From Rhodospirillales bacterium (GTDB taxonomy: Bacteria; Pseudomonadota; Alphaproteobacteria; Kiloniellales; JACOMY01), in NCBI GenBank assembly GCA_014324045.1, contig JACOMY010000005.1, positions 1 to 64,000 on the forward strand: a DNA stretch of 64,000 nucleotides, given 5' to 3'. Made by a program: the position numbers and the translations under genes. A model generated the notes under the pieces. It was not told where the DNA came from. It searched no databases and saw only the letters and a list, made by a program, of their open reading frames with translations. Below, in pieces: positions 44,969 through 55,768 of the stretch; within the stretch, counting starts at the first letter, position 1; each line of letters opens with the position of its first letter.

Positions 44969-45590
44969 AGGGTAGAGGCGGAAAGAGAATTCGTTCCAGG
45001 CGCGGTTAGCGGTGCGGCCGCACGCTTGCGCTTCCTAATTCTCCTTCCGGCTCTTGTCTTCTCCGGTTCCGGTTCTCGCTCCGATCATCCGCGCCCCTGC
45101 CCAAGGCCGGCGGACCGACTGGAGCATCGGCCTTTCAGGCCGGCGCAATCCTCCGGTCGCCAATGCCCTCGGATCGCCATCGGCCCTGCGCTGCGCTACC
45201 CCGAAGGCGCGTGCAGCCCGCGATCTTCCGCGATATTAGCCACAGCCCTGCTGACCGGCGAACCAAGACGCGACCCAAGGAAACACCGGGGCGTCACTGC
45301 CGCCTTATCGCGATATGGAATCGATCAGCGGACTCCTCTAGCCTATCTTGGCTGTGTGCCCCAAGCCGCCGGGTCGATCCGGCCGGTGATGGCGGGGCGA
45401 TCAGGGCTGAGCCGAATTCGCGGAGCAAGGCGATGTAAAGCCCGGGGAATGGCGCAGGATTACCATACGCTATGACTACGATGCCAGGAATTTTATATCT
45501 TCCCTCTGACTCGCGGCAACTGTCTGCCATGGGTTATGAGTCCGAAGCCTAGGATGATGAACTGTATAGTTTCCCGAAACCAAATAGTGA
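44969..45590. other. Intergenic region between dhaK and the decayed defence locus
   Basis: 622 bases with no supported gene; this is the left boundary of the druE/druH block. An inverted repeat (44979-45049) follows dhaK closely. A further GC-rich repeat, AAGGCCG and CGGCCTT, lies near 45100-45132. The 149-aa ORF at 45026-45475 has no recognisable content. No tRNA, integrase or direct attachment repeat is seen. Confidence 0.5.
44979..45049. repeat. 71-bp inverted-repeat element after dhaK
   Basis: Arms CGGAAAGAGAATT (44979-44991) and AATTCTCCTTCCG (45037-45049) pair at 12 of 13 positions and enclose a perfect 12-bp palindrome GTGCGGCCGCAC (45012-45023). It could be a complex 3' RNA structure of the dha operon or a small non-autonomous element. 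Confidence 0.5.
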
Positions 45591-48500
45591 TTATTCGCGG
45601 CAGCTAATCACGGGACCAACGCTTAACACTGTTTTCTGGTCAAAAGTGTGCACAACCGCAAACGAAATATCGGCCAGGCGAATCGCCTGCGACTGAATGG
45701 AAGAGGAGAAGTCAAACGGCATTACTCGTCCGCTGCGCCAGAATCCGAAGCCCTGATCAAGACGAACCTGGAGTTTCGAACCGTCGGCCCAATTAAGGGT
45801 CAGCCGGCGTTCGTGCGGCAAGGCCCTGCGGCCCCGTAGGACTAGACTGCCCTGCAGATCTACCTTTGCGAACATAGTCTTCATAACCCTGCAGCGGTCA
45901 TCATCCAACTGCCAATTGTCATGCAGTCTCCCAGAGTACCTCGATTGGCCCGTCTGGCGTGGCTGCATCGAGGATACTTCAATCGGTGTGTCGTTGCAGA
46001 TGCCGGGAATACTCCGGACGACCTCAAATAACAGGCGGATTACCAGAGGAGACAGAAGATACCGATCAGAATAGCTCACCGTCGATGGGGATTCTTTCGT
46101 CAGAAGCTGGCGCGCGTCAGGAGTAAATTTCTGGATCAACTGCCAAAACTTGCTTCCGAAGCCGGAAACGGTACCATCGAGCTGACCGCCAACTGCAAAC
46201 TCCCTGACCTCGTGGCCTATCGGCGGACGAAGATCGTCAACTGAAATCGCATCATCCGCATCGAGACGTCGATGAGAACCTCGGATCAATGGCGAATCGA
46301 CTGTCTGCCCCCAGTTGTCATTCGGTGCTACAGAATCCATCTCCCTGGTTGCCCAAGCCATAGCACGGTCTGCTTCGTTGACAACTGCCAACAACGTCCA
46401 ATCTCCCAAGCCTGAGCCCTTTCGAGCAATATGGACAGTTGCGCCGCTCCGCATAGTCAGGGCGTGCAGGTGCCTGAGTTGACTCGTTGACAACCGGCCG
46501 ATCGCGTCTTGCTCGACAAGGAGTTCAACCTTGCAGCCAGCGTGAAGCGCCCGGTCGACCAGCAGTCTCGCAGACCAGCTATCGAGTTCCCAAAGATCGC
46601 TATCGCCGCCGAGTGGAAGCTGGAGAAGGTTCCCAGGCTTAAGCTGCCCGGAAATGGCACCGGCTACCTCCCGGACTTCAATGGCGGACGATGAACCGAA
46701 GACCTGCAAGTCCTCAGGCATTTGCAAACTCGGAAGGACGCGGCTCTGTAGCAGGTCGAGTGCGCTCTTCCGGTCCAATTTGTCCATGTGAAACCTACTG
46801 TCCTGCGTCAGGATGCAGGAGGAACAGGCATTCACGCAGCCCCTATTGCTACAATTTAGCTGCCGGGAGGCTTCCTGCAGTAGGTCGTGAATGCGGTCAG
46901 CGGCTTGGGTTGCCAGACCCGCTCCGCCAGAAGCCTGGTCATAGAGAAAGATGCTCCAGCAGCCCTGTCCTTCTGGACCGCTCCTGTAAAGGGCAGACCA
47001 ACCAACCTCACTATTCTCGACGCCGAGATCACGGCACAGCGCTTCTCGCAGAGCGATCGAAACTGAGTGGGCAGCATGTTCGTGCCCGCGCCTGTGACTG
47101 AGGTCAAAGACTTGGAGTTCGAAAACGTCTGTTTGCGAAAATGCGCCGAGCGCCAAATGCCGGCGGATGGCGAAGTGGGACTGTGTCCCGGTGCAAAATT
47201 GCTGGCCACTACTTAGAGGACGATGTTCCTTCATCCTCTGGCTCAAAGGTCGGAGCCCCTGCGATGTTGGGGGGTGTTCCGGTTCGGCCCTTCCACAATG
47301 CAGGCACAGGGCATAGCCATGCCCTTGTTGGCCTAGAGTCGAGTGGAACACTGAGCCCCTACGGGTATGCCGCATGCGCCCGACCTCAGGATTGGGGAGC
47401 GGTGTCCAGCGTGCGTCGTTGGCTGAAATATTAGGCTCTACCGGACGCACGGAATCGATCTGTGTCACATCGGTATGGGGACGATCGGCCGTATCGATCG
47501 TGAACCCGGCCGGCTGCAGATACTCACGGCGCTGCAGATTCTGCTTGCCGCACTCTGCACAGTGGGAAGGCTTGCTTGCAGCATCGCCAGACGCGTTGCA
47601 GCTTTGGCAACGCCAAGCCCAGCGTAATGCCTGGGGTAGCCGGCTGTCGTCGTCGGGGCGGCGCCAATTCAACCGCACACCGGCGCATCGATAAACAAGC
47701 CCATCCAGCACGACTTCTGCGCCCGGTGCATAATCCCTTATGGCAGTCCGGAGTTCGCGAGATGGGCTGTCCCGAAGCAGAAAGCGGTTGTCGTCACCGG
47801 GCAACCGCCGATCGTCTCTCCTGCCAAGCCGTAGCAGAAACGGCACTACGTTCGTTGGATAGCCATAGGCCGGGAGAAAACTGCGCCCGGCAAGCTCACC
47901 GAGCAAATAGGCGGAAGTCTGCCGTTCCAACTGATTGAGAAGGCGTTTGCGATCCGCTGAACCATCGCGAATGCCTGCCAGTTCCTCAGCCAACGCATCC
48001 ACTTCGCCCTGCCATGACACCTGCAGGCCGTTCATATGGTTCGCGCATTCCCCGAACAGATCCGCCTGTTGCTTGAGCGCGGTGCCCCACACAAGGCGGC
48101 CGAGCCCCTTAACGATTGGCTCGGGCATCCTTGCGTCAGCTAGACACCAGGCGATAAATCTATCCGCGATGGATTTCCGCGAGCGTTGCAGAGCTTTTTT
48201 CTCCACCACTCGCCCGAAGAAGAAGCCCGGTTCCAGCTTATGGAGCTCTTCCTCCTGCTGCAAACGCAGAAAACTGCTCAAGAGATAGGCATTGACATGG
48301 CGTTGAACCACGATCGGACTGTCGAGCTTGACTTTTGGAGTTCTCAAATTTGCCGTCAATGGCCGCGTGGGCTCAGTAAAAGTTGTCCGGCCCAGCGGTT
48401 CGTCCCGGACAAATGTCAATGCCAGGGACATCGCCTCCGAACGGCGGCCTGCACGACCGACACGTTGCCTGTAGTTGGTCGGCGAAGGCGGTACATTGGT

Positions 48501-51500
48501 ATTGACCACGGCCGCCAACCCGCCGATGTCGACGCCCATCTCCATTGTCGTAGAGCAACTGAGGAGATTGATACGCCCTTTCCTGAATTCCCGTTCGTAG
48601 TAGCGAAGTCGTTCACTTGGCTGTTGCGCAGAATGCTCTGCTGCCAGGTATGGGCGCTCAAATCGCGCAACTCTGTCGTGCAGGTTGGACCAGACCCCGG
48701 CCTCGCGAAGGTCCCGTATCTCTGGATCGGTGCTAACCCATTCCGACACTTCCGCCTCGTCACCGGAGTTCTTCGGAAAGGAAACAGGCAGTTTCGGGAA
48801 GGTAATTTTTTGGCATTCCAAGCTGCCAAATTCCGTCCCAGACGGCTGGTATGGCGATAGGCCGCACACGGTGTCGTCCAAAACCGATCACGTGATCGGA
48901 CATAGCCACCCATGCGTGACGGGCGCAAGCCGAGCGCCCCGCAAATCCAGTTGAAAGCCGCGTGCGCCTGGGCGCGGCACAAGAACAGGTTGGAGATCGG
49001 ACCAGGCTTGCCCTATACAAGCGTTCAGTCGGTCGCGGTCCGCCGGAACGGCCGCATCGAGGTTCAGAATGTACGATAACAGCGAAAGGGCGTTCGATTG
49101 CCGGCCACCAGGCCGGGCTTGTGGCCAGCGTCTATTGCCTTCCGGAACGCCATCGAAGTGTGGCGGCAGGACAGAGCGGACTGGACTGCGAATGCCGAGC
49201 CATCGTACGTCTTCTCGATCGACAGCGACGGCAAGATTCCCGCGCACAACATGCGTGAGCAGATAGCGCAAGAATGACTTCCACGCATCGATCTTGAGAT
49301 TGGCGGAAGAGAAGGCTTCTGGAATATGCCGGTCTTCAAGTTTCTCTATTGCCTCGAACCTGAGCCAGGCCAAGCCCATTCTCTCGGCACTGTTGGCACG
49401 CTTTGGTCTCTTCCTGAGTTCTCTCAACAGCAGCAAGTGGCTCAGTCGTTCGCTGTCAACAAATCGATCGTCGCGCCAAGCCCATACGGCCTCCTGAACC
49501 CAATGCTCGAAATCCGGTTGACTGGAGAGATTACGGACTAGGGCTTCCCATGTGATGCCACGCCGCCGGCCGCCAAGACTTATCTCCTCAAGGCGGCGAC
49601 GCTTCCGATCGTAGAATTCTTTGATCTCCGGTTGTTCCTTGAGTGCTTCTAGCTGCGCTAGATCGTTTTTTATCTCGGTGATCTTCTCACGATCCTCGTC
49701 CGACAATTCGTTATTCTGGACGGCGTGATAAATCACCGACCGCACAAAGTTCCGCTCGCTGTCCTGTTGTAGCCGTGCAGCGAACCGCGCCGTGCCTTGC
49801 CTGCTGTCGGTGAAGCTGATCAATTGACGGCCATTCCACGGCAAAGGCCCATCTAGTTGTGTCGTCGGCCGCTCCGGCAGTTGCTGGAGTAGGTTGGGGA
49901 TCGCATTCCCAAGCAGGAAAGGTGCACCGAAACGAAGACGGCGCAGGAAATCCGACCGGCGACGGCTTCCCGAAGCACCGCACGAAGCGCAGCGATTTGC
50001 CTCGGCGATCCGGAGTTCAAGAGCGCCGTCGCTGCGCATGTCCAGAATGTCGCCGGTCGAGGCGTTCACCGAAATCGGCCAGCTAACATCGGGCCTAGCA
50101 CGCCCGACGATTAATCGCCTGTCGGATATAGTGTCCGCTGTTTCATACGGTTCGCTTTCGTCGTCACCGTCATCATCGCCGCCGGCGTCTGCAGCGGCAA
50201 GTTCGCTTCCCTGCGCGAACTCGTCCTCAAGTTGATGTGGCCGGTATTGTGCAAGTCGTTTCCCGTCGATCTCCTCCGCCAGAAGATGCGGCTCGCCGCA
50301 CTCATCGCACGCTGCCAGTTCAAAGAGGATTGATCCGCAACTCGCGCAGTTGTCTTTTTCCTCAAGAAACACGGCTCCCCAAGGCCAGTCCTCATCGGGA
50401 AGCGCCTTGTCGAGCCGCTCGGGACACTCCCGGTTAGAACAGACCCAGAGACCAGGTTGTGCCCTATGGAACAGATGCAGGCGTACCGGCAGCAGGCGTT
50501 TCTCACCGACGTGCAGTTCAGCCGCCGTCTCCACAATGTTCAGCGCGTCTCTGCTCCGAGAATCATCGTTAAACAGCAGCTTTGCAGCTCCGGAGATCGC
50601 AAGCGGTTCGCCGTCTGCTAGGTGATTGCGAAGGCGACGGAATGGCTTTGCGCCAACCAAATGAGTAAGCTTCTCAGTATCGGTGAAGCCGTTTAGCAAG
50701 GCTACGTCGACGTCGTCGCCTGTCGGCGACGTTTTTAGCCTGGGTACGTCTCTTTTGCCGACGACAATGCGTACCTTATTCGCTGGAATTCCTGCCATGT
50801 CGGCCAGAAAGTGGCGCAGTTCTTCTTCGACGGTTTCGCCCGAGCCGATCGTGGCCGAAGTCGCCACGAAACGGACATCTTCGGCGCGTACTTCGAAGGC
50901 TTCCAGGACGCGCCTGAGCAAGAGTGAAATTTCTGCTGCCTGCGATCCGACATAAGTGTGCGCCTCGTCGAGCACGATCCAACGCAGTCTGCCTTTCGAC
51001 TGCTCGATGATCGGTGCATCGATCTGCCGGATCAGCATGTACTCGAGCATCGTGATGTTGGTCACGAGAATCGGTGGTGCGTCGTCACGCAGCGTTGCCC
51101 GGTCTCGCACTTCGCTTGGAAAGCGTCTCGATTCGGCCTCCGGCACTTGCTCCGGCGTTCCGCCGTTGTAGAGGCAAAAGCGAATTCGCCCGTCGAAGTC
51201 GTGGGTCCAGTCCAGCAGGCGTTCACGCTGACTATTAATTAGCGCATTGAGCGGATACAGCATCAAGGCACTGACACCACGCAGCTGATCTTGTTCTCGA
51301 TAACGTTGAATCAAATCCTCGAGGATCGGTATGAGGAAGCATTCGGTCTTACCCGACCCGGTGCCGGAGGTGACGAGGACCGACGACGGCGGTTCCGCCA
51401 ACAGCGTCTTCCAAGCATCCAACTGGTGAGCATAAGGATGGGTTGACCTAGCAAGTCTGTAGCGATCGTCCCTCAGGTCGGGGAAATGTGGGGTCTTGCC

Positions 51501-51755
51501 GTCGAGAACATCCAACAGCTCTTTGCTGAGCAGGCTGTCCGATAAGTCTGCAAGGCTTCGATCGGCGGGCAACCAGCCGAAAGCGCCCTCTAGGACTGGA
51601 TCGGCGAGGAAGCTTCCGGGCTCGCCTGGCTTGGCAGAAAGCGCCTTGCGCAAAAAACCGTTCAGGGGGCGCGACCGGATCCCAGCTTGGCTAATGATGG
51701 CATCGGCTGAGCGCTGGCAGAGATCTTCTAGGAACTTGTAGATGCCTCTTGTCAT
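45591..51755 (-). pseudogene. druE: DruE-like DUF1998 helicase, broken by one in-frame TGA
   Basis: One 2055-codon frame split by TGA at 48888-48890. The two ORF-track pieces (48888-51785 and 45591-48881) are in the same frame, reading WLCPIT-stop-SVLDDTVCGLSPY. A single CGA-to-TGA change would explain it. The N-terminal part has DEAD-helicase motifs SGTGSGKTECFL and VLDEAHTYVGSQAAEIS, zinc-ribbon cysteines, and ISFTDSRQGTARFAARL. The C-terminal part has motif VI YRQRVGRAGRRSE and a DUF1998 cysteine cluster CSNRGCVNACSSCIL. Size, domain order and the partner upstream fit DruE of Druantia anti-phage systems; other DUF1998 helicases are possible. ATG 51755 has AGGAG upstream; a TTG at 51785 overlaps the druH stop. 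Confidence 0.75.
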
Positions 51756-51781
51756 TGCGCTCTCCTGCCATTCACAAGCTC

Positions 51782-54700
51782 TCAATTCCTCGGATCTCGC
51801 GCAAAATGCAGAATGCCCAACGGATAGACGCGGTCGAAGTAGGTCTGATCGAAGCGCCGCGCCTCCCGCACCGAACGACTTAATTCGGAATTCGATGGAA
51901 GCCCATGAGCTGCGTAACGGGCTGCAAGCAAGGGAGCTGCAAGTGCCGGAAGCATGTGCGGGGCAGCATCGGGCAGCAAGCTACATACGTCTTGGATCCT
52001 CGATTGTAGGATAGACCAGGAAGGCCACTGGCGGTCAGAATTCCTAATCATGAAGGACTGGCATTCGCCGGCCAGCGTAACGCTCTCGCTCGCGTCCTCC
52101 GATGGCGGCAAGCTGATCCCGGTTTTTTGAGAGATCGCACGCACCGTGGCGTATAGACGCGGTGCCGCATCCGCAATCCAGATCAGTCTTTCCGCCACAA
52201 ACTGCCCGGCAAGGCGATCGTGGTCTGGCACGCCATGCATTTGCAACGATTGCGACAGCGTCTTAAGACAAGCTGAGAACGCCCCGACCCACTGCTCTAT
52301 CGGCACCAAACACCAACAAAATGGCACCTCGTCCTCCGGCTATCAAATAATACATGTAAAGCGCGAGGGCACCAAACACCAACAAAATGGCAGCTCGTCC
52401 TCCATATTGACAACCGCTTCGATGGAGCGACGGTCCTGCCGACCGGCCAACATCGCGACCAAGGCTTTGGGATCTGCGGAAAGCGCTACCAACCAATCCA
52501 AAATGGTCAACGATAGCTTGCCTTTATATGTGCGCAGCGCCGCATCGAACTGTTTCCAATCGGGATCGAGCGGATCGGCTGCAATTTGCTCCAGATGTTC
52601 AACCATCGCCGCCAGTCGCACGTTCTTGTCGCTGAGCAAGACGCAAGCAACGAAAGGCTCTTCCGCTCGTTCATGTTTGCCTTGCGGTGGGATTACGATT
52701 GGCCGCGTTCTCGGCCGTCCTCTCACCTCACCCCAAAGCAGAATGGGCGAAGCGGAGATCGGTACACTCGTCATTTGCGTAAGATTGGCTGACGATAGCA
52801 CACCAAGCGTGTTCGGTGACTGTATAAGGTCGGTCAGGTCTGCGGTCAGGATCTCAACGCGCTCCGCACCTTCGTCGCGTAGCTTTTGAACGGATTGTGC
52901 CGCTAAATGAACATTGCGTGTCCCGGAGGTTTCAAGGGACAAGTCGAAGCGGCCAAGTTCAATCCGGGCATTCTCAAGCTCAAGTCGGATATGAGCGTCG
53001 AGATCGTCGCTCTCCGAAAGCAGCGCCTCGAACTCGGATTGGTGCGCCGCGATCGAAACCAAACCTTGGACAGGAACGGCATAACTGAGATTCTGTCCGC
53101 GGCCGACAGCGAGAAGCTTAGCAAATAGCAGAGACTTCAAAGGTGCCGAAGCTCTAAGCCCTGCCAGCTGATCAAGTCTATAGGGCACATACGATCGCTC
53201 TATCCAACTACCGTCGGCAGTAATGAAACCGACCCTGTTCCCAGGAAAAGGCACGCTCATTGGTCCAGTCGCGCCTGTAGGAAAACGGATGTCGATCGTC
53301 AGATGGGATGGCGGCGCATTCGGCGAAGCGATGTCTAATCCATACACGCTTTCTGCGCGACGGGGCTGAATGTTCAGATCGTCGCATTGCTCCACCCAGA
53401 TCTCCGCGCCTTCGAGGCCATAAAAATGCAAGCTACCCTCACCTGCACCTCTGGCACTGACTTCCAATCTGAACTCGTCCGGCAGTACGATCGCCCTCGC
53501 GCTTGCCTGCAACTCCTCATTCACGACGACCGCGATGTCGATCGCTCCGACGGGTGGCCGATTTCGATCCAATATTGTCCATGATTGGCGACGGCCCACG
53601 GGCCGCCATCGAATTGAGTGCGTAGGGACATTGATACCGCCCTCAAACAACAATGTCGGCCAGCCGACGCAGATGAGTGTTTGCGAGGAAATCTGCGATG
53701 GCGGTTTGCCAAATATTATTAAACGCCGTCGCCGATCTTTCTCGGCTCCGGGGACGACTCGCACGACCAAACCATCGGACGTATCGAAGGTGGCGGGGGC
53801 AGTCACTTCGATTAGGTTAAGCCTCGGGGAACGTAGGTTTTCCTTTCGCGGTTCCACCGCCTCAGCATCCACTTGCAGCGACACAGCGCTGTCGTCGAAA
53901 GCCACCCAAATGGAGGCGGCACGACTCTGCAGGCTTCCTGAACCGGCATGCACCAACTCGCCAGTCTCCGCGTCCTTCAGAAAGACTTGAATCTCACCGT
54001 CCAATCTCTCGCCACCGGGGACCACGAATGGATCGGATACTTGGTTGCCGACCCGCGCGGTCATTTCCACCGATTCCTCCAAGGGCAACGGTATTGCGGC
54101 ATCACGGTAACGCATCGGACGAAATGCCCAGCGATCTTCTTCACGGCGCTCGCCGATCGAAAGCTCTCCCGGTGCCACACTGCCGAAGGCTGCGTTCCCT
54201 TGCAGACGAACTCTCAGTACTTCGGTACCGATCATGCTCTGAATGCTATGCGGGAGGCGTCTCGATGAGACTTCACCGGCAAGACTCAGTCGAACGGCCG
54301 GCGTCCAGTGCCCGAGGCCGTCATTGACAAGCACACGACGAATGAACGCACCCAAGGAACCACCGCCTTGGTCTTGCACGCGCTGACGCACGAGCCCTCG
54401 CACTAGTTCCCTTGCAGCTTGGTCGGAAAGGCGAACTGGGAGCTGATTATCCCAACCGGGTGCACACTCGTTCAGCCGAAGGATCGGGTCTGCAAACTCC
54501 TCGAGCGGACCAAGGTGCTCCCGCAGCGATCGGGTAACATCGACCAGTTCGGCGCCAAGATGATAGATCTCGTCGTGACAGAGGCTCGCTGGCAAATAAC
54601 TCCTAGCGTGCTGTGTCGCGACGTCTTCTAGTTCAGCGGAATCGAGCCCGTATTTCTTTGCATCGGCAAGCAGAAGGGTGAGCCAGCGCCGTACAGATGC

Positions 54701-55130
54701 GGCCTCGTGATGAATGAGGGCTTCGGGGAATCCGCCCTCGACTACAACGGAGAACATGTACTGGGTCTGCGTTTCGGTGCGCCGCAATGGCCGCTGCCAC
54801 CAGTTAAAGCCGTCTGTGATAATCCCGGCTCGCTCATCAAATTGATCGAAATGAACGCCGATAGGCTGCTCCACAGTCGCCCAGGTCCAGGCGCCATGCT
54901 GATGTTTTGTGCGAAACGCCTCAGAGGCGTAGAGGACATACGCCGCGGTTGTCGCACGTACGCCGAACACTCTCGGCGTACTGCTTCAACAAGGCTTCCA
55001 AGCTTAGCATCTCGTCGCTGGTTATGCGGTAGGCGTAAAGAGTCCGCCAATCTGGCTCCTCAAGATCGCGAGCCTGGAGAAACTGGCCAAGCCAGCGATG
55101 GAATAGATAGTCGAGAGTCCCGTTTGCCAT
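51782..55130 (-). pseudogene. druH: DruH-like (STY4851/ECs_5259-type) protein, broken by a frameshift and an in-frame duplication
   Basis: A gene of about 1100 codons, now in three pieces. The N-terminal piece starts at ATG 55130 and includes LEEPDWRTLYAYRITSDEM. It shifts frame by one base near 54960, joining ESVR to ATTAAYVLYASEAFRTKH. The large middle piece ends at 52343 after FCWCLVPSRFTCII with TGA TAG. The C-terminal piece resumes in frame as PFCWCLVPIEQWV and ends at 51782. Removing a 66-bp duplication restores the join. The N-terminal LYAYR and LYASE...GAWTW patterns match my memory of the STY4851/ECs_5259 family, the DruH protein of Druantia type III, and the druE-like gene follows directly. 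Function in that system is unknown; it is called essential for defence there. Confidence 0.62.
52302..52403. repeat. druH: 36-bp direct repeats, 66-bp offset, disrupting druH
   Basis: Copies at 52302-52337 and 52368-52403 (GGCACCAAACACCAACAAAA...) differ at one base and are separated by a 30-bp AT-rich spacer. The unit length of 66 bp keeps the reading frame but brings TGA and TAG into it. It looks like an imperfect tandem duplication or a small insertion that copied its target. Confidence 0.9.
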
Positions 55131-55768
55131 GAGCACCACAACCCTTTTGGGTAGTTGTTTATGCCACTCATATTCAAGCTGCGTCTGCGAACGCATGCAA
55201 CTGGTGCGAGACTGACACAACGCATCAAGCTTAGCGATCTGCCTAGCGACTTTAACTACCCGCGTTAATCCGACATTCCCCAAGTCAGGCGCCGTTTGAC
55301 AGCAGAATTGCATGATCGGGCCAGCCGATCGAACGTTTTTCGGCGCGGTCAGGCCGGAGCACTTGCGGCCGGTGGGATTGGGCCGTGAGTTCCCCAGCTC
55401 TCCATAGACCGGCCGCCGGAACAACCTGTCGAGTCAATGGAACCTGTGCTTGCCCGGACGGCTATTGTGCAGGACCGTTGCCGCCAGATCGGACAGCCCG
55501 AGTCCGCCGTCACGTGCGTGCATCACCGACAGCCCAGCGTCCGAACCGGGCGGCGCGCCCTGGAATTCCGGTCGCGTCCGCCCTAGCTGGACCCAAAGGT
55601 CAGACCACCCGATCGTCCCCTTTGCAACCTGCACCCCTTGGGGGAGCTGGCAGGTTCGCCCTTCCAAGCCGTTAAAGTCCCGATTTACCATAAAAATACT
55701 GCAATCGGGACAGCCAAAGCAGCGGATCGCTCGGAGAATGCGAGCTGGAATGCAGGCTGGATGGTTAG
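55131..55768. other. Region between druH and gcvT
   Basis: 638 bases without a recognised gene; right boundary of the defence block. The frame of the druH N-terminal piece stays open upstream to 55424, but its content upstream of 55130 does not resemble the family. A minus-strand frame from about 55693 to 55434 (MVNRDFNGLEGRTCQLP... to NSRPGKHRFH) is open for some 85 codons but I recognise nothing in it. A stable inverted repeat sits at 55626-55656. gcvH and gcvP, which often follow gcvT, are not here. Confidence 0.5.
55626..55656. repeat. 31-bp stem-loop near the right boundary of the defence block
   Basis: AACCTGC (55626-55632) pairs with GCAGGTT (55650-55656), and inside it CCCC pairs with GGGG around a two- or three-base turn. 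No U-tract follows on either strand, so it is not a classical terminator. Confidence 0.55.

What the first reader, a model, noticed from the sequence alone, without database searches (positions are those of the whole stretch)
45591..55130. A decaying Druantia type III-like defence locus
Two adjacent minus-strand genes, a roughly 1100-codon unknown protein and a 2055-codon DUF1998 helicase, match the two-gene layout of Druantia III (druH, druE). Both are broken, by three independent kinds of lesion, while the flanking metabolic genes are intact. That points to recent loss of a defence system in place, not to sequencing noise.
Basis: partly seen in the sequence, partly recalled or inferred. Interest (0 to 1): 0.72.

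Follow-up and report, generated by a model that had tools for sequence, protein, structure and literature searches.

The report
Defence gene broken by stray CRISPR spacer
A bacterial anti-phage system (Druantia type III) is dead in this genome, and one of its three breaks has the exact shape of a CRISPR memory unit inserted in the wrong place, suggesting that the cell's own CRISPR machinery sometimes damages other genes, including other defence genes.

Summary
Window 45591-55130 carries a two-gene Druantia type III operon (PADLOC DruH3, DruE3) broken by a frameshift in druH, an insertion with stop codons in druH, and a nonsense codon in druE; flanking genes are intact. It is 66 bp: a 36-bp piece of druH duplicated around 30 bp of foreign sequence. 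The same genome has a type II-C CRISPR-Cas locus with 36-bp repeats and 30-bp spacers (period 66) and a type I-E locus with period 61. I scanned 2.0 Mb (71%) of the genome for isolated repeat-filler-repeat units at spacings 40-160. Of ten non-tandem units, four have spacing 66 and one 61 (binomial P about 3e-7). The 61 unit splits a second defence gene (Hhe). In 800 kb from three relatives, none had spacing 60-62 or 65-67. Best explanation: off-target spacer integration by the resident Cas1-Cas2 integrases. Off-target integration is known; several natural scars in one genome, two of them breaking other defence genes, appear to be new. No source of the fillers was found, and the target does not resemble the native leader-repeat junction.

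The parts
45591..51755 (-). druE (DUF1998/YprA-type helicase), split by a nonsense codon
   Evidence: PADLOC DruE3 PDLC00037, positions 7-947 and 951-2049 of 2055, E = 0 for both halves; DEAD, Helicase_C and MrfA Zn-binding domains
48888..48890 (-). in-frame TGA in druE
   Evidence: ORFs on both sides are in the same frame; relatives have no stop there
51782..55130 (-). druH, in three pieces
   Evidence: PADLOC DruH3 PDLC00039, positions 23-119, 118-969, 960-1138 of 1142; alignment with intact relatives
54921..54970 (-). stretch that contains the druH frameshift
   Evidence: overlap of the two ORFs; homology passes from one frame to the other
52302..52337 (-). 36-bp direct repeat, copy nearer the 3' end of druH
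   Evidence: the repeat finder: 36 nt, spacing 66
52338..52367 (-). 30-bp filler ('spacer') of unknown origin, carries TGA TAG in the druH frame
   Evidence: single copy in own genome at up to 3 mismatches; translation; unlike druH within 500 bp
52368..52403 (-). 36-bp direct repeat, copy nearer the 5' end of druH (35 of 36 identical to the other)
   Evidence: relatives have this block once

Best explanation
This is a dead Druantia type III operon. Shown: two genes and three lesions. Inferred: the 66-bp druH insertion is an off-target spacer integration. The resident type II-C Cas1-Cas2 integrase joined a 30-bp prespacer to the two strands of druH 36 bp apart, and gap filling duplicated those 36 bp. 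That left a repeat-spacer-repeat unit outside the CRISPR array and brought two stop codons into druH. It fits a wider pattern in the same genome: isolated units with the type II-C period (66) or the type I-E period (61), one of which splits a second defence gene (Hhe). The druH frameshift and the druE stop look like ordinary decay. The order of the lesions is unknown.
For: Exact 36/30 geometry of the insertion equals that of the resident array, repeats 36 and spacers 30. Cas9 and Cas1_II are intact, and contig C44 is tied to this genome by a 99-bp perfect contig overlap. The filler is unique in the genome and not a copy of the flanks. DruH relatives carry the duplicated block once. Genome-wide: of ten isolated non-tandem units in 2.0 Mb, four have spacing 66 and one 61, P = 2.9e-7. 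The 61 unit matches the resident type I-E array and splits Hhe. None at 60-62 or 65-67 in 800 kb of three relatives. Both strands of the druH target begin with G, the base preferred by type II integrase at off-target sites (PMC6895254).
Against: The target does not resemble the native leader-repeat junction more than random positions do. No filler has an identified source. The C1 unit has a 41/25 split instead of 36/30, and two of the spacing-66 units are decayed or partial. The control genomes' CRISPR content was not checked. Only 71% of the genome was scanned.
Confidence: 0.78

Rival explanations
1. Repair or replication error without CRISPR: a staggered break or a template switch duplicated 36 bp of druH and captured 30 bp of stray DNA, and the match with 36/30 is a coincidence.
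For: Duplications do occur in this genome without CRISPR: tandem duplications of 41, 53, 64 and 66 bp were found. The target does not look like a leader-repeat junction.
Against: Those others have no unique filler. Both lengths match the resident array exactly, and spacings 61 and 66 are in excess genome-wide but absent from the control stretches.
Confidence: 0.16
2. Assembly or sequencing artefact: some or all of the breaks are not in the organism.
For: Draft genome in 46 contigs; no reads available; nearest relatives too distant to check single bases.
Against: Three different kinds of lesion fall in one foreign operon while the neighbouring genes are intact. A 30-bp sequence absent from the rest of the genome is not a usual assembly error. 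A similar unit splits a second gene on another contig.
Confidence: 0.05
3. A working neo-CRISPR unit, or a reversible switch that turns druH on and off by recombination between the 36-bp repeats.
For: Repeat-spacer-repeat form; direct repeats of this length can recombine (general knowledge).
Against: The repeat is no more like the native repeat than random positions are, 7-9 of 36 matches, so it should not be read by the native system. Two further lesions remain in the operon.
Confidence: 0.01

Closest known systems
Druantia type III (druH, druE; PADLOC DruH3, DruE3)
   Same: Both genes, their order, full-length profile coverage over the pieces, intact helicase motifs
   Different: All copies of the two genes here are broken; about 42% identical to the nearest DruE found
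Off-target (non-canonical) spacer integration by Cas1-Cas2 (Nivala et al. 2018, not held; cited through PMC9456107 and PMC11687729; type II-A in vitro, PMC6895254)
   Same: Spacer-length DNA inserted outside the array with duplication of a repeat-length target
   Different: Here it is a natural scar, type II-C geometry, in a gene of another defence system, with further scars of two integrases in one genome; the target does not resemble the leader-repeat junction
Ectopic spacer acquisition in Streptococcus CRISPR arrays (PMC7999890, abstract only)
   Same: A type II system inserts a spacer at an unusual place
   Different: Those events stay inside the CRISPR array

Membership tests
Druantia type III | DruE3 helicase, full length | tested here: met
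   PDLC00037 positions 7-947 and 951-2049 of 2055, E = 0
Druantia type III | DruH3 upstream of druE, same strand | tested here: met
   PDLC00039 positions 23-119, 118-969, 960-1138 of 1142; same order in relatives
Druantia type III | Both genes intact, so that the system can act | tested here: not met
   Frameshift, insertion with stops, nonsense codon
Off-target spacer integration | Target duplication of the resident repeat length around an insert of the resident spacer length | tested here: met
   36/30 in druH; array 36/30
Off-target spacer integration | Resident, intact adaptation genes of the matching subtype | tested here: met
   Cas1_II and Cas9; Cas2 reading frame
Off-target spacer integration | Site resembles the native leader-repeat junction | tested here: not met
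   No better than random window positions. Reported as a tendency for type II-A off-target sites (PMC6895254), so it lowers confidence and does not by itself exclude membership
Off-target spacer integration | Insert derives from a phage, plasmid or other protospacer | tested here: inconclusive
   No source found
CRISPR array | Repeat related to the resident repeats | tested here: not met
   7-9 of 36 matches

The most novel reading that the evidence does not exclude
CRISPR adaptation is a recurrent natural insertional mutagen: in one genome the type II-C and type I-E integrases have each left repeat-spacer-repeat scars outside their arrays, and two of the three clearest scars break other defence systems (Druantia III and Hhe). 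If defence genes are hit, or kept as hits, more often than chance, this would be a route by which a cell loses redundant or costly defences.
Probability: 0.45. Interest if true: 0.8.

Novelty: new variant of a known kind. Interest (0 to 1): 0.62.

Why it matters
Off-target spacer integration is known mainly from laboratory work. This genome suggests a cheap, testable signature: isolated repeat-filler-repeat scars whose spacing equals the period of the resident array. A scan of public genomes with it would measure how often CRISPR adaptation mutates its own host, and whether some pseudogenes in defence islands arise in this way.

Tried and rejected
(1) Source of the druH filler: phages, plasmids, IMG/VR (26-mer, 19-mer, two codon-degenerate patterns, 16- and 17-mers) and GTDB (22-mer) gave only chance hits, best 21 of 30. 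(2) Likeness of the druH target to the native repeat or leader: none; the C1 and C4 targets also show none to either native repeat. (3) Simple tandem duplication: rejected, the filler matches neither flank (9 and 3 of 30) nor anything within 500 bp. (4) Type I-E as source of the druH unit: rejected, its period is 61. (5) Transposon footprint: I know of no insertion sequence with a 36-bp target duplication (general knowledge). (6) Close DruE relatives: the GTDB pattern scan found none, 60 relatives gave only partial helicase matches, the best in class was 42%. (7) Dating the decay: not possible at that distance. (9) Rfam on the window: no match. (10) The 66-bp duplication without filler at L058:1733 was not counted as an event.

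Full report
WHAT IS THERE. On the minus strand, window 51782-55130 is druH and 45591-51755 is druE. PADLOC profiles match the pieces in order: DruH3 (PDLC00039) positions 23-119, 118-969 and 960-1138 of 1142; DruE3 (PDLC00037) 7-947 and 951-2049 of 2055, E = 0 for both halves. Pfam adds DEAD, Helicase_C and the MrfA zinc-binding domain. Intact relatives in alphaproteobacterial plasmids and in genomes of the same class show the same two-gene order. The nearest DruE found is about 42% identical. The operon is compositionally foreign: third-position G+C about 0.6, against about 0.8 in the neighbouring gcvT and ptsI-like genes (the value printed there for the first half of druE is in the wrong frame and is not used).

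THREE LESIONS. (a) A TGA at 48888-48890 splits druE; six relatives have no stop there. (b) A frameshift lies in druH between 54970 and 54921; homology passes from one frame to the other. (c) A 66-bp insertion within 52302-52403 duplicates a 36-bp piece of druH (35 of 36 identical) around 30 unrelated bases that read TGA TAG in frame. The DruH relatives carry the duplicated block (ELPFxW in most) once. Flanking metabolic genes match their Pfam domains end to end. 'Recent' is plausible, because motifs and long frames survive, but it cannot be dated.

THE INSERTION HAS CRISPR-UNIT GEOMETRY. A 36-bp duplication around a 30-bp insert is what a Cas1-Cas2 integrase makes when it adds a spacer. The same genome has, on contig C44, a 1102-aa Cas9, a type II Cas1 (Cas1_II, E 1e-96), a Cas2 reading frame, and an array of eleven 36-bp repeats with nine 30-bp spacers and one of 69. 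I call it type II-C from this gene content and the Cas9 size; subtype models were not run separately. C44 ends in a 99-bp perfect overlap with contig C9 and shares gene families with C8 and C9, so it belongs to this genome. A second system, on C15, is type I-E (Cas8e, Cas7e, Cas5e, Cas6e, Cas1e) with array period 61. The druH filler occurs once in the genome at up to three mismatches and is unlike druH within 500 bp, so a tandem duplication does not explain it.

TEST ON THE REST OF THE GENOME. The idea came from druH alone. I then took stretches of the genome, 2.00 Mb or 71% in all, and applied one automatic criterion: match +1, mismatch -3, score at least 18, spacing 40-160, filler at least 10, no other repeat within 400 bp. 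The criterion was fixed after earlier, looser scans had shown most of these units, so the P values are indicative. Twelve units passed; two are low-complexity tandems. The other ten have spacings 60, 61, 66, 66, 66, 66, 86, 102, 144 and 147. Five of ten at exactly 61 or 66 has binomial P = 2.9e-7 under uniform spacing; four at 66 among eight multiples of three has P = 2.3e-5. Removing druH, the unit that suggested the idea, leaves four of nine. The same scan on 800 kb from three relatives gave five units, none at 60-62 or 65-67. The CRISPR content of those relatives was not checked, so this control is useful but not perfect.

THE OTHER UNITS. C4:63074 (L142:3074): perfect 31-bp repeat, 30-bp filler, spacing 61. 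It splits a gene that PADLOC matches to Hhe and PDC-S37 (helicase with a C-terminal nuclease domain): its two ORFs match profile positions 720-1191 and 1182-1367, and relatives have the duplicated VAITRARREL block once. C1:27019 (L132:7019): 41/25, spacing 66, in frame in a small ORF. L068:17644 (35/31, 31 of 35 identical, at the start of a DctQ transporter gene) and L033:2387 (25/41) may be older or partial cases and are weaker evidence. L187:9553 (27/33, spacing 60) lies in a short reading frame. The C4 and C1 fillers are also unique in the genome.

MECHANISM. Shown: the anatomy, the matching lengths, the resident integrases, the excess of these spacings. Inferred: Cas1-Cas2 attacked the two strands of druH 36 bp apart with the 3' ends of a 30-bp prespacer, and host repair filled the gaps. 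Type II-A Cas1-Cas2 inserts at non-CRISPR sites in vitro with a preference for G (PMC6895254); both strands of the druH target begin with G. Off-target integration in living cells is reported by Nivala et al. 2018, which is not held here; it is cited through PMC9456107 and PMC11687729. Against the idea, the druH target does not resemble the native leader-repeat junction and no filler has a known source.

WHAT IT IS NOT. It is not a working CRISPR locus, since the repeat is unrelated to the native one. It is not a simple on-off switch for Druantia, since two other lesions remain.

VERDICT. A real, dead Druantia III locus, ordinary as a pseudogene, with one lesion that most likely records stray CRISPR adaptation. 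The wider pattern in the genome makes a survey worthwhile.

Noticed in passing
window 55545-55750; L063:3236-3432 (C12); C33:28076-28285 (L044:8076-8285): A roughly 200-bp element upstream of druH has exactly three copies in the genome (69-75% identical). The other two lie directly upstream of AAA_13 genes that PADLOC matches to the candidate defence family PDC-S06. Shared leader, cassette end or insertion hotspot.
   Followed up: partly
window 45359-45435: Remnant of an hsdS 3' end (type I restriction specificity subunit) just downstream of druE, itself frameshifted; it matches HsdS-like genes elsewhere in the genome, such as C30:592-653.
   Followed up: partly
C4:62445-64872 (L142:2445-4872): Hhe/PDC-S37 defence helicase gene split by a 61-bp insertion with type I-E geometry.
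   Followed up: yes
L046 (G136 contig C34): A Druantia III locus in another genome of the same class also has split ORFs, at other positions, so decay of this system may be common.
   Followed up: no
L024:2648-2716 (C44 array): One 69-bp spacer among 30-bp spacers in the type II-C array; it may contain a shortened repeat.
   Followed up: no
L058:1733 (C7): 66-bp tandem duplication without filler near the start of a 565-aa ORF; same length as the type II-C period, perhaps by chance.
   Followed up: no
L068:17644 and L033:2387: Possible old in-frame units of spacing 66 at the start of a DctQ transporter gene and inside a 522-aa ORF.
   Followed up: partly
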